NCBI GenBank assembly: GCA_013153315.1
Contig: JAADES010000008.1
Location: 1 to 46,135 of the forward strand
DNA length: 46,135 nucleotides
Direction: 5' to 3'
From: Aquificota bacterium
GTDB lineage: Bacteria > Aquificota > Aquificia > Aquificales > QOAS01
Below, in pieces: positions 3,007 through 33,403 of this stretch; the first letter of the stretch is position 1; the number at the start of each line of letters is the position of its first letter. The position numbers and the translations under genes were made by a program. The notes beneath the pieces were generated by a model. It searched no databases. It was given only the letters and a program-made list of their open reading frames with translations, and was not told the DNA's origin.

Positions 3007-3069
3007 AAGCGTTAATCCCTCTAGCGTTAACGCTCTAGGGGTTAACGGTTAGGGGAGGGTGCTATTGTT
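3007..3069 (-). repeat. Hairpin repeat, divergent long copy (R5)
   Basis: On the minus strand this begins ACAATAGCACC and ends ATTAACGCTT, the two flanks of the 39-nt family at 20220, 21826, 22152 and 22235. The interior is longer and holds the 12-bp palindrome AGCGTTAACGCT. It starts 4 bases after the stop of the Crp/Fnr gene and overlaps the start of the next gene. Confidence 0.65.
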
Positions 3070-20194: not shown

Positions 20195-20342
20195 TTGTTC
20201 CCCCAAAGGGGCGGGTTAAACAATAGCACCCTTTCCTAAAGGAAAGGGGTTAACGCTTTGGGGGAACAGGGAAAGGGTGGCGACGAACATAATGCTACGC
20301 TCCAAGCGTAGCGTTTACCTATTTGCCACCCAAACCCGCCCC
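20195..20342 (+). ncRNA. Candidate bridge RNA in the leader of the IS110 transposase
   Basis: The 275-base gap before the transposase folds strongly. A 13-bp perfect stem pairs 20196-20208 with 20256-20268 and encloses a hairpin repeat (stem 20229-20236/20241-20248). A second arm pairs 20275-20283 with 20323-20331 and, above a 7x7 internal loop, 20291-20301 with 20305-20315. A further 10-bp match between 20208-20217 and 20333-20342 would make a pseudoknot or an alternative fold. IS110-group elements such as IS621 encode a bridge RNA upstream of the recombinase, with two loop-bearing arms. Position and architecture fit; sequence homology was not testable. Confidence 0.6.
20220..20258 (+). repeat. 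39-nt hairpin repeat (R1)
   Basis: ACAATAGCACC, then stem CTTTCC, loop TAAA, stem GGAAAG, then GGGTTAACGCTT. It lies inside the 13-bp outer stem of the candidate bridge RNA. Confidence 0.85.
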
Positions 20343-20392
20343 TACCCTATAAACGCAAAAAATCCCAAAAACCAAAGGCGGGGGATAAAACT

Positions 20393-21832
20393 ATGGAGAA
20401 AAGGAAACTTGCTAACCAAAAACATCAAAACAGCAAAGTAAAACGCACCTATTGGGGTGTAGATGTAGCTAACGGCTTTATAATCCTCAACAACGGCAAC
20501 CCTTGCACATTCTACCTATACATAGATGCTCCCAACATTACCCCAAAAACCCCCGCCAATAAACTAAAGGCGTGCAAAAAACGCACCAAAACCATAAAAA
20601 TTGAAGACCTTGCCGAAATAATAAAGCCCAACGATGTGGTAATCCTTGAACAAACGGGAAACTACGGAATACGCTATGCCCAACTATTTGCCCAACTCGG
20701 TGCAACAGTAATGCTCGCAGATAGCAAAATGTTCGCTTTTTTCCGCAAAGGGCGTAATGTCCACAAAAACGACAAAGTAGATGCCTACCTATTGCGTCAA
20801 ATGTTTTTCGACATAGAATTTAAGCACTACATACACAAATTTATTCCCGAAAAACACCACCTACGACAATTAATAAAAAGCAACCAAAAAATTGAAAAAG
20901 AAAGAACACGACTTATAAACCGCCTTAAAAACCTCTTAGCCGTAGCCCTACCTAAAGAAAACTACCATCACCTTGAAACCCAAAAATTTGTTAGAAAAAT
21001 AGCCGAAATAAAAGAAAAAATAGCCTTAACGCCCCACCCATACACGGAAACAATTTATTTAAGCCTCGAAATCTTAGAAAACTACGAAAAACTTTTAAAA
21101 GCCCAAACCGCCGAAATAGAAAGCATTATTAAAAATCACCCCGACTATGAGCTTTTAAGCACCATAAAAGGATTTGGAACAAAAACTATAGCGACCCTAA
21201 TAGCCTACTATTGGGACATTAAAAGATTTAAAACCCTAAACCAATTTAAAGGCTATATGCTAAAAGGAACAATAATAGAACAATCGGGGCAAACTATTAA
21301 CCGAATAAAAAACCTAAAAAGTCGCCCCGAAGTTAAAAAAGTGCTATACCTACTTTGGAAACAAACCGCCCGAAGAAAAAACAACCCACTAAGGCACTTA
21401 GTAAAACTAAGCTACGAAATAAATAAAAAGAAAGCTTGGATAAAATTCGCCGACAAACTTTTAGAGCTGGTTTATTATATGCTCAAATACCGCCTAACCT
21501 TTGCCGAGGCGGTGGAATATTCAGTTAAAAACAAAGAAAAAGAAATAAAAAACCTTACAAAACAACTAAGTAAAAAGCTAAAAGAAGAGCAAAAACAAGA
21601 ATACTTTAAAAAGCTTGTTAAGCTACAGCATTTAATAAAAAACTGGGTGGCGTATCAGGATACTGCCTTAGAACTAAAAGAAGGCGCAACGGAACTATGC
21701 CACCCAACACCTAAAACCTTACTAAAACAAACCTTAAGCCTATTAGAACCCAACGAACTTAAAACCTTAGCTATAAACCTACAACTTTTAGATAGCGAAC
21801 TAACAAACCCCCTAAAAGAAACCCTACAATAG
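20393..21832 (+). CDS. IS110-family DEDD transposase/recombinase
   Basis: A 479-residue recombinase. The N-terminal RuvC-like domain keeps D24 (WGVDVAN), E86 (LEQTGNYG), D127 and D130 (KNDKVDA). The C-terminal Transposase_20 domain has the GFGTKTIATLIAYY turn and the nucleophile S298 in IEQSGQT, so all catalytic residues are present and the enzyme should be active. The final 100 residues or so (from KNKEKEIKNLTKQL) are an extra charged helical extension not usual in IS110 proteins. The TAG stop lies within a hairpin repeat. Weak GGCGGGGGA-type ribosome site upstream. Relatives IS621 and ISPpu10 insert into REP palindromes guided by a bridge RNA. Confidence 0.92.
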   Translation: MEKRKLANQKHQNSKVKRTYWGVDVANGFIILNNGNPCTFYLYIDAPNITPKTPANKLKACKKRTKTIKIEDLAEIIKPNDVVILEQTGNYGIRYAQLFAQLGATVMLADSKMFAFFRKGRNVHKNDKVDAYLLRQMFFDIEFKHYIHKFIPEKHHLRQLIKSNQKIEKERTRLINRLKNLLAVALPKENYHHLETQKFVRKIAEIKEKIALTPHPYTETIYLSLEILENYEKLLKAQTAEIESIIKNHPDYELLSTIKGFGTKTIATLIAYYWDIKRFKTLNQFKGYMLKGTIIEQSGQTINRIKNLKSRPEVKKVLYLLWKQTARRKNNPLRHLVKLSYEINKKKAWIKFADKLLELVYYMLKYRLTFAEAVEYSVKNKEKEIKNLTKQLSKKLKEEQKQEYFKKLVKLQHLIKNWVAYQDTALELKEGATELCHPTPKTLLKQTLSLLEPNELKTLAINLQLLDSELTNPLKETLQ

Positions 21833-21864
21833 CACCTTTCGCTTTAGCGAAAGGGTTAACGCTT
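21826..21864 (+). repeat. 39-nt hairpin repeat (R2), contains the transposase stop codon
   Basis: ACAATAGCACC, stem TTTCGC, loop TTTA, stem GCGAAA, then GGGTTAACGCTT. The TAG of ACAATAG is the transposase stop. The stem differs from R1 on both strands while pairing is kept. Confidence 0.85.
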
Positions 21865-21901
21865 TTACAGAACTTAAACCCGACCTTATGGGAGGATAAA
21901 A

Positions 21902-22087
21902 ATGATTTCCTACGACAAAAGCATAAAAATCCGCATAGACAGCGAAACCTTAGAAGAGCTAAAAATATTGGCACGCATAAACAAAGTTAAAACCTCGGAA
22001 TTTATAAGGCAACTAATCTATAGAGAACTACGGAAAAACCGAGACCTAATAAAAGAAGAGAAAGAAAAAGCCTTACACCAACCCTAA
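21902..22087 (+). CDS. Small ribbon-helix-helix (CopG/Arc-like) protein
   Basis: 61 residues. The strand KIRIDSETLEELKILA followed by the turn and helix KVKTSEFIRQLIYRELR is a ribbon-helix-helix DNA-binding fold, which acts as a dimer. A strong site GGGAGG precedes the ATG. No toxin gene follows, so an antitoxin role is unsupported. Lying just behind the transposase and between hairpin repeats, it may bind the palindromes or control the transposase; this is inference. Confidence 0.75.
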   Translation: MISYDKSIKIRIDSETLEELKILARINKVKTSEFIRQLIYRELRKNRDLIKEEKEKALHQP

Positions 22088-22109
22088 CTAACCCACAACA
22101 CACCGCCCC

Positions 22110-22153
22110 AATAAAGGCAACTCTACTAACCCATTTAATAAAGGCAACTCTAC
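22110..22153 (+). repeat. 17-bp direct repeat, 27-bp period
   Basis: AATAAAGGCAACTCTAC occurs at 22110 and again at 22137. The second copy runs into hairpin repeat R3, and its GGCAACTC can pair with GAG...TTGCC beyond R3. Confidence 0.8.
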
Positions 22154-22190
22154 AATAGCACCCTTCCCTAAAGGGAAGGGGTTAACGCTT
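22152..22190 (+). repeat. 39-nt hairpin repeat (R3)
   Basis: ACAATAGCACC, stem CTTCCC, loop TAAA, stem GGGAAG, then GGGTTAACGCTT. An outer helix GGCAACTC/GAG-AA-TTGCC encloses it, echoing the outer stem of R1. Confidence 0.85.
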
Positions 22191-22234
22191 TTCGAGAATT
22201 GCCAACGGCCTCCTATTGACAAGGGGACGAGACT

Positions 22235-22273
22235 ACAATAGCCTCCTTTCCTTTAGGAAAGGAATTAACGCTT
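22235..22273 (+). repeat. 39-nt hairpin repeat (R4)
   Basis: ACAATAGCCTC, stem CTTTCC, loop TTTA, stem GGAAAG, then GAATTAACGCTT. The change CC to TC on the left is matched by GG to GA on the right, a compensatory pair. Confidence 0.85.
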
Positions 22274-22388: not shown

Positions 22389-22547
22389 ATGGAAAGCTTC
22401 GACACCATCTTAAAACTACGCATAGACAAAGAAGAACTAAAGAAAATCGCAGAAAAAGAAAAAACCACAATGAGCGAATTAATAAGAATGCTCATTTATT
22501 CAAAAATAGGGGAATACCGAAAGAAATATCTCCCCAAAAAGATTTAA
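22389..22547 (+). CDS. Second small ribbon-helix-helix protein
   Basis: 52 residues: MESFDTILKLRIDKEELKKI, then a helix-turn-helix stretch with TTMSELIRMLIYSKIGEY and a basic tail. The strand LKLRIDKEEL and helix MSELIRMLIY parallel the protein at 21902 (KIRIDSETL, SEFIRQLIYREL), so the two are likely diverged duplicates. AAGGGGGT precedes the ATG. It is the last coding sequence before a 770-base noncoding stretch. No partner toxin is visible. Confidence 0.68.
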   Translation: MESFDTILKLRIDKEELKKIAEKEKTTMSELIRMLIYSKIGEYRKKYLPKKI

Positions 22548-23108: not shown

Positions 23109-23155
23109 GTGCTTAAACCCCGCAAAAAAAGTGTATTGTTGCGGGGTGCTATAAT
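23109..23155 (-). repeat. Divergent hairpin repeat (R7)
   Basis: On the minus strand ATTATAGCACC precedes and GGTTTAAGCAC follows a 9-bp stem (23117-23125 with 23139-23147) with a 13-base loop. Flanks and layout match the 39-nt family apart from the longer loop. Confidence 0.55.
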
Positions 23156-32246: not shown

Positions 32247-33347
32247 ATGGCAGTTTTAGCTGTTTCGGGCGGCGGAACGGGCGGACACTTTTTCCCCGCC
32301 CTAACCGTTATGGAAAAAGCTAAAGAAGAAACCGCTTTCAGGGAAATATTTTTCCTCGGAGACCGCCGGGGGATTGAATACCGTTTAAAAGAAACCCTTT
32401 CTAAGGTAGCAACCCCCGTATTCCTCCAATTGGAAAAGTTTAAAGGGGTTTCCCTCGCAAGGAAACTAAAGTTTTTAACCTCCTTGGGAAAAAATATTTA
32501 TCAAATCCATAAAGTGCTGGAAGGAAAAAATTTTATCTCCCTCCATTTTGGGGGTTATACGGGTGTCCCCCTCGGTCTATATTCGGTATTGAGAAAGAAA
32601 CCTCTCTTTCTTCACGAACAGAATTCTATTCCCGGAGCTACAAACCGATACCTTGCCAAGGTTGCAAAAAGGGTTTTTATTACCTTCCCCCAAAGTGAAA
32701 AATTTTTTCCCAAACATAAGGTGGTATTAACCGGTATGCCCCTCCGCAAAGAGGTAAAAAAAGCCAAAAACCTTTCAAAGGAGCAAATTTATAAAAAGCT
32801 CGGTATTGAAAAGGAACTTTTTACTCTCCTTATAATGGGAGGTTCCCAAGGGGCCAAGGCTATAAATAAGTTGGCTGTGGAACTTTCTCTTCTCCTTAAA
32901 AAGGAAGATATTCAAATAATCCACCTTACGGGGCCTAGAAATTACGAAGAAACCCTTTCAATGTATAAAGCGGCCAAAGTAGACCTTTCAAGGGTAAAGG
33001 TAATTCCCTTTTACCTGAATATGGGAGAAATTTACCGAATTGCCGATTTCGCTATTTCCCGCAGCGGGGCGGCCACCTCCTTTGAGTTGGCCTATTTTGG
33101 AATACCAACCCTATTTATACCCTTCCCTTACGCTATATACAACCATCAGTATCACAACGCTAAGTATTTCGTCCAAGAGGGTGGAGCTTACCTTATGGAG
33201 GAAAAATTTTTGAACCTAAATAAGGTGTTGTTAATATTGAAAAACCACCTGAAGGATAAAAGTCTGCACCAACAAAAAAGGGAAGCGATGCTCAAATCCT
33301 TCATTCCCGACGCGGAAGAAAAAATTTTAAAAAACCTTTTTTTGTAA
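32247..33347 (+). CDS. murG: UDP-GlcNAc:undecaprenyl-pyrophosphoryl-MurNAc-pentapeptide transferase
   Basis: Converts lipid I to lipid II on the inner face of the membrane. The 366 residues contain the N-terminal loop SGGGTGGHFFPAL, LHEQNSIPGATNRYLAK, the mid-loop MGGSQGAKAINKL and the UDP-GlcNAc site SGAATSFELAYFGIPTLFIPFPYAIYNHQ. It is not in a dcw cluster here. A divergent hairpin repeat begins at its last base. Confidence 0.94.
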   Translation: MAVLAVSGGGTGGHFFPALTVMEKAKEETAFREIFFLGDRRGIEYRLKETLSKVATPVFLQLEKFKGVSLARKLKFLTSLGKNIYQIHKVLEGKNFISLHFGGYTGVPLGLYSVLRKKPLFLHEQNSIPGATNRYLAKVAKRVFITFPQSEKFFPKHKVVLTGMPLRKEVKKAKNLSKEQIYKKLGIEKELFTLLIMGGSQGAKAINKLAVELSLLLKKEDIQIIHLTGPRNYEETLSMYKAAKVDLSRVKVIPFYLNMGEIYRIADFAISRSGAATSFELAYFGIPTLFIPFPYAIYNHQYHNAKYFVQEGGAYLMEEKFLNLNKVLLILKNHLKDKSLHQQKREAMLKSFIPDAEEKILKNLFL

Positions 33348-33403
33348 AGCGTTAACCCAAACCTTTAGGATTTGGTGCTATTGTAGGTAAAGGTGCTATT
33401 GTT
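33347..33403 (-). repeat. Hairpin repeat (R6) with a partial second flank
   Basis: Core 33347-33384 on the minus strand: ACAATAGCACC, stem CAAA(T)CC, loop TAAA, stem GGTTTG, then GGTTAACGCTT, with one bulged base. An extra GGTGCTATTGTT copy (plus strand) lies at 33392-33403. It begins on the murG stop codon. Confidence 0.75.

What the first reader, a model, noticed from the sequence alone, without database searches (positions are those of the whole stretch)
20220..22273. Family of 39-nt repeats with covarying stems around the IS110 gene
Four copies of exactly 39 nt (20220, 21826, 22152, 22235) share ACAATAGCMYC and RRRTTAACGCTT flanks around stem N6, loop TWWA, stem N6'. The stems change in paired fashion (CTTTCC/GGAAAG, TTTCGC/GCGAAA, CTTCCC/GGGAAG; CC/GG to TC/GA). 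Three divergent copies lie at 3007, 23109 and 33347. Selection on the hairpin rather than the sequence is implied. IS621 and ISPpu10 target REP palindromes, so these may be a REP-like family exploited or spread by this recombinase.
Basis: partly seen in the sequence, partly recalled or inferred. Interest (0 to 1): 0.75.

Follow-up and report, generated by a model that had tools for sequence, protein, structure and literature searches.

The report
Tiny mobile hairpins that invade genes
The repeats are copies of a roughly 39-letter hairpin DNA element that has jumped about 50 times around the genome of an Aquificota bacterium, landing in frame inside essential protein genes and inside the RNA parts of other mobile elements, which would make it one of the smallest gene-invading mobile elements known.

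Summary
The four 39-nt copies are real. The genome (1.35 Mb Aquificota MAG) holds 24 exact and about 46 model-supported copies. Their arms are near-invariant (ACAATAGCA...TTAACGCTT) and the stem between them changes in a paired way at all 8 positions. Five of six sister species have 1-4 copies; 54 genomes of sister families have none.

Empty-site comparison shows precise insertion: four gain exactly the element's length (35, 36, 37, 39 nt; no target-site duplication), a fifth fits within one nucleotide. Copies sit at hairpin tips of IS605/TnpB omega-RNAs, in the 5' leader (likely bridge RNA) of the window's IS110, inside each other, and in frame inside protein genes (HolB, PurH, PanE, SecA tail, TnpB), adding about 12-14 residues such as KSVNPSPLGEGAIV.

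IS110 is probably neither source nor mover: it is single-copy, a 72%-identical IS110 in a sister genome lacks all four repeats, and four sister species have copies but no IS110.

Best reading: a non-autonomous palindromic micro-transposon that works like Rickettsia palindromic elements and Nostoc SDRs but strictly is neither. The mobilising enzyme is unknown; IS200/IS605 TnpA is the leading guess.

The parts
20220..20258 (+). 39-nt element copy, stem CCCTTTCC/GGAAAGGG, inside the first hairpin of the IS110 5' leader (putative bridge RNA)
   Evidence: 60.8 bits; folds at the tip of an outer stem beginning GTTCCCCC / ending GGGGGAAC; absent from the related IS110 of G002
21826..21864 (+). 39-nt element copy, stem CCTTTCGC/GCGAAAGG, overlapping the 3' end of the IS110 ORF and supplying its stop codon (CTA CAA TAG)
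   Evidence: 57.5 bits; sequence; absent from G002 IS110
22152..22190 (+). 39-nt element copy, stem CCCTTCCC/GGGAAGGG, flanked by a short outer stem GGCAA/TTGCC
   Evidence: 61.5 bits; outer stem
22235..22273 (+). 39-nt element copy with variant arm ACAATAGCC, stem TCCTTTCC/GGAAAGGA
   Evidence: 52.0 bits
33347..33384 (-). 38-nt element copy immediately after the murG stop codon
   Evidence: 53.2 bits; sequence
33385..33402 (-). left-half remnant ACAATAGCACCTTTACCT of another copy, directly abutting the previous one
   Evidence: 14.6 bits for 33390-33402; sequence
3007..3068 (-). nested copy: outer element ACAATAGCACCCTC...GAGGGATTAACGCTT with further element sequence (ACCGTTAACCCC..GTTAACGC) inserted in its loop
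   Evidence: 37.7 bits, E 1.5e-8 genome-wide; sequence
20393..21832 (+). IS110-family DEDD recombinase gene (479 aa); host of insertions, not the source
   Evidence: Pfam DEDD_Tnp_IS110 and Transposase_20 above cut-off; single copy
20197..20345 (+). structured 5' leader of the IS110 element, putative bridge RNA, interrupted by the copy at 20220
   Evidence: alignment with the G002 IS110 leader; both fold better than shuffles, z -6.5 and -4.1; that this is the bridge RNA is inference from IS110 architecture (PMC11208160)

Best explanation
The motif is a non-autonomous palindromic micro-transposon of 33-39 nt: fixed arms ACAATAGCA and (G)TTAACGCT[T/A/C] around a freely varying hairpin stem. It inserts precisely, in either orientation, with no target-site duplication, preferably at AT-rich dyad sites (about CYTA^TAAG), which often form the tip of a hairpin, including its own loop. 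Shown: dispersal, empty sites, exact insertion length, nesting, in-frame insertion in proteins, residence in IS605 omega-RNA tips. Inferred: it moves as a folded single strand through an enzyme supplied in trans, most likely an IS200/IS605-type Y1 (HUH) TnpA; IS605 copies may carry it between genomes; copies persist where a hairpin or an extra 12-14 residues does no harm.
For: Genome-wide copies 24 exact / 46 with E<=3e-5; 1-4 in five of six sister species, 0 in 54 other genomes of the order. Covarying stems. Empty sites: net gain 39 nt in a C18 omega-RNA against four TnpB loci of other genomes (arithmetic), 37 nt in an IS605 left end, 36 nt in tnpB, 35 nt between paralogues within the genome; a further omega-RNA site fits within 1 nt. 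HolB carries a 13-14-residue insert absent from all six sister species; PurH an N-terminal insert absent from seven orthologues that reach the N-terminus. Nested copies and outer stems (9 of 2000 shuffles reach the observed total). Symmetric flank preference.
Against: No active mover identified: no DDE_3/IS630, and the single Y1 transposase found in this genome has an in-frame TGA. No polymorphism within one strain could be tested; the sister genomes are different species, so deletions are not formally excluded at every site. Outer stems are strong in only about a quarter of copies. Target sites are AT-rich, so the dyad preference is weak evidence for hairpin-tip targeting.
Confidence: 0.85

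Rival explanations
1. The motif is a target or by-product of IS110 (like REP sequences targeted by IS621/ISPpu10) and was spread by this recombinase.
For: Four copies lie within about 2 kb of the IS110 gene; some IS110 elements target REP palindromes (PMC11208160).
Against: IS110 is single-copy. The G002 IS110 (72% identity) has no copies nearby. Four sister genomes have copies without IS110. Intact copies with different stems flank the gene instead of one split copy. TnpB loci hold more copies than the IS110 locus.
Confidence: 0.06
2. A regulatory or structural RNA motif (protein-binding internal loop) maintained by selection at each place, not mobile.
For: Conserved arms and compensatory stems look like an RNA motif; several copies have an outer stem as well.
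Against: Copies lie in frame inside unrelated protein genes, nested in each other and on either strand; orthologous sites are empty in sister species; no match to any Rfam family in the window or in the copy-bearing loci.
Confidence: 0.06
3. Mobile once, but stem covariation is produced by template switching (quasipalindrome correction) rather than by selection for the hairpin.
For: Known mutational mechanism that keeps palindromes perfect (own knowledge); stems vary widely while arms do not.
Against: Would make stems perfect but not explain spread to new sites; does not compete with mobility, only with the claim of selection. Not tested here.
Confidence: 0.35
4. A deletion derivative (MITE or PATE) of an IS200/IS605 element, that is, a remnant of an IS end.
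For: Many copies sit in IS605 omega-RNAs and left ends; IS605-type elements insert without target-site duplication (own knowledge).
Against: Related IS605 ends in sister genomes lack the motif at the same site, so the motif is an insertion into the IS and not part of its end.
Confidence: 0.1

Closest known systems
Rickettsia palindromic elements (RPE; Ogata et al. 2000, summarised in PMC10969869 and PMC3733652)
   Same: Palindromic repeats inserted in frame in unrelated, probably functional protein genes; dispersed; no known dedicated transposase.
   Different: RPEs are about 150 bp with a conserved peptide and are described as ending in CGTC (PMC3733652); these are 33-39 nt, lack CGTC, and occur in Aquificota.
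Small dispersed repeats (SDR) of Nostoc punctiforme (Elhai et al. 2008, known from memory; cited as SDR in PMC3116915)
   Same: Very small hairpins, compensatory stem changes, nested insertion in each other, embedded in mini-transposons, confined to a narrow clade.
   Different: SDRs are 21-27 nt and have other sequences; in-frame protein insertion and omega-RNA/bridge-RNA residence are the features stressed here. Comparison rests on memory of the abstract: the paper is not held.
REP / REPIN with RAYT transposases
   Same: 20-40-nt hairpins with stems that vary by paired changes; thought to be moved by Y1 transposases (PMC3116915, PMC3733652).
   Different: No GTAG tag; REPINs are inverted REP doublets, these are single hairpins; no intact Y1/RAYT found in this genome.
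MITEs (Correia, RUP, ERIC type)
   Same: Non-autonomous, dispersed, with a terminal inverted-repeat character.
   Different: No target-site duplication and no matching DDE transposase; 5-10 times shorter.

Membership tests
Rickettsia palindromic elements | In-frame insertion into unrelated ORFs | tested here: met
   HolB, PurH, PanE, SecA, TnpB
Rickettsia palindromic elements | Length of about 150 bp with a conserved encoded peptide; CGTC end | tested here: not met
   33-39 nt; arms ACAATAGCA and TTAACGCTT; definition from PMC10969869 and PMC3733652
Nostoc SDR | Very small hairpin with compensatory changes | tested here: met
Nostoc SDR | Copies nested within copies | tested here: met
   C34:1905-2016, C39:3007-3068, C24:20541-20594
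Nostoc SDR | SDR sequence families of 21-27 nt | tested here: not met
   longer, 33-39 nt; SDR sequences themselves were not available for comparison
GTAG REP/REPIN | Terminal GTAG tag | tested here: not met
   arms invariant in alignment A1
GTAG REP/REPIN | Cognate RAYT (Y1) transposase gene flanked by the repeats | tested here: inconclusive
   One Y1_Tnp with an in-frame TGA in G000, two matches in G004, none in G001-G003; an element of the family lies upstream of tnpA in G004 and upstream of the G000 one
MITE | Target-site duplication | tested here: not met
   Net gain equals element length at four sites, within 1 nt at a fifth
IS110-derived or IS110-targeted repeat | Copies at IS110 boundaries or IS110 present wherever copies are | tested here: not met
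Mobile element with trans mobilisation by IS200/IS605 TnpA | Cleavage and strand transfer of the single-stranded element by TnpA | not testable with these tools
   needs biochemistry

The most novel reading that the evidence does not exclude
A sub-40-nt element that moves as a folded single strand and inserts, without target duplication, at the tips of hairpins, so that it colonises structured RNAs (TnpB omega-RNA, IS110 bridge RNA), itself, and protein genes in frame; it would be the smallest known protein-invading mobile element and a natural source of new loops in guide RNAs and housekeeping proteins.
Probability: 0.3. Interest if true: 0.75.

Novelty: new variant of a known kind. Interest (0 to 1): 0.58.

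Why it matters
It extends the kind of mobile element known from Rickettsia and Nostoc to Aquificota, combining the small size and nesting of SDRs with in-frame protein insertion as in RPEs. Because empty and filled sites exist in one genus, how such tiny elements move, a long-open question, becomes testable. It also suggests a route by which guide RNAs of TnpB and IS110 gain new stem tips.

Tried and rejected
Rfam: no hit in the window and only a tRNA in 82 kb around copies, so not a catalogued RNA family. IS630/Tc1 origin suggested by TA flanks: no DDE_3 gene and no TA duplication. A 3-bp TTA duplication looked possible from TTA..TTA flanks of one subfamily, but the other empty sites fit the bare element length; for HolB alone 13 or 14 residues cannot be told apart. 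Integron attC resemblance (TAACAAT...): considered by eye, rejected because the arms are not complementary as attC arms must be. Occurrence outside the genus: the whole-collection pattern scan stopped at its limit with 101 hits, about the 90 expected by chance; of the five with a perfect stem of 6 bp or more, the three Aquificota ones are proper elements, and I judged the other two by eye as chance. Orthologous empty sites for the window copies near murG, crp and sufD-speE could not be read because gene order differs between species. Papers describing such an element in Aquificota: none found.

Full report
Observation. The four 39-nt copies are at the stated coordinates. A covariance model built from 19 distinct copies finds them at 52-61.5 bits in the window, plus a strong fifth at 33347 on the minus strand and a nested sixth at 3007-3068; the claimed copy at 23109 does not score. 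In the whole genome the exact pattern occurs 24 times, with none for the reversed control; 46 model matches have E at or below 3e-5. All eight stem pairs have changes on both sides and every measure exceeds shuffled and slid controls. The arms are 99% and 87% identical between distinct copies while the stem halves are 49% and 43% identical.

Distribution. In the same genus five of six other species have 1-4 copies and one has none; 54 genomes of other families of the order have none. Contigs of the sister genomes match public records titled Aquificota or Aquificales MAGs (L096, L126, L129). A scan of about 85,000 species gave chance-level matches elsewhere. The present genome therefore shows a recent expansion.

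It is an insertion. In a C18 TnpB right end (omega-RNA region), TnpB loci of three other genomes read GAAGTAA^CGCC where this genome has 39 extra bases that are exactly ACAATAGC...CGCTA on the other strand; a second copy sits in the tip of the next hairpin and fits an insertion of the element within one base. In G003 an IS605 left end carries a 37-nt copy between CTTAGCTA and ACGCAAAG; a paralogue without it has the same length otherwise. In tnpB on C3 the gain over an 82%-identical gene is 36 nt. On C7 a repeated unit gains exactly 35 nt over another copy of the unit in the same genome. In none of these four cases is there a target-site duplication. Flanks favour CYTA^TAAG, a dyad; flanks are more complementary across the element than after shuffling (9 of 2000), and about a quarter have a strong outer stem. 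Copies nest in each other's loops.

In proteins. Copies are read in frame in DNA polymerase III delta-prime (HolB: ETEEG-KSVNPSPLGEGAIV-KKNF; six sister orthologues lack it), PurH (N-terminus; orthologues lack it), PanE (C-terminal tail), the SecA C-terminal linker, a secreted protein and TnpB. Lengths there are 36 or 39 nt. Sites are termini or linkers, as expected if only harmless insertions persist. A 35-nt copy on C21, not a multiple of three, splits a tnpB.

The IS110 locus. The gene at 20393-21832 is an IS110 recombinase, single-copy. A 72%-identical one in G002 has none of the repeats. Its leader aligns with that of G002 and both fold stably; by the architecture of the IS110 group (PMC11208160) this is probably the bridge RNA, and the copy at 20220 sits in its first hairpin. 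The IS110 locus, like the IS605 loci, is a tolerant landing place. It is not needed for spread, since G003-G006 have repeats but no IS110.

Mechanism. Shown: precise insertion without duplication in either orientation, nesting and paired stem variation. Inferred: a folded single strand is inserted by an enzyme acting in trans. A Y1 (HUH) transposase of the IS200/IS605 type fits (acts on hairpins, no duplication; own knowledge), and elements of the family lie upstream of tnpA in G003/G004 and G000, but the only Y1 gene found here has an in-frame TGA. IS630 is absent. I put about 0.35 on TnpA as mover. Template switching may contribute to stem pairing.

Known relatives. It works like Rickettsia palindromic elements (PMC10969869, PMC3733652) and the Nostoc SDRs (memory; cited in PMC3116915), but differs from both in size and sequence, lacks the GTAG or CGTC tags of REPs, and lacks the target duplication of classic MITEs. 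I class it as a new variant of a known kind.

Noticed in passing
G000 contigs C3, C8, C16, C18, C21, C22, C47, C50, C51, C53 (e.g. C3:20551-20572): A second hairpin micro-family, TGAAGCC-stem-GGCGRAAT, 20-23 nt, 12 exact copies against 1 in the reversed control; stems differ in paired fashion and it is sometimes nested with the first family.
   Followed up: partly
L176:1970-2060 and L186:200-760: IS200/IS605 left ends have become mosaics of nested palindromic elements of both families.
   Followed up: partly
window 20197-20345 and L254:140-300: Structured 5' leader of an IS110 element in Aquificota with paired changes between species, a candidate bridge RNA.
   Followed up: partly
window 21902-22087 and 22389-22547: Two small ORFs with weak similarity to ribbon-helix-helix/CopG proteins (below Pfam cut-offs) follow the IS110 gene; the G002 IS110 is also followed by small ORF-like sequence.
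   Followed up: no
L142 and L173 (C7, C4): Solitary copies of an apparent TnpB omega-RNA-like unit (GGGTAGTAGGCAAGGTTTAAACCTTGC..GGAGAAAGGG), apparently without a tnpB gene nearby.
   Followed up: no
C34:1905-2016: An alternative left arm ACC[AG]TTAACCC is nearly the reverse complement of the right arm, suggesting that the ancestral element was a longer perfect inverted repeat.
   Followed up: no
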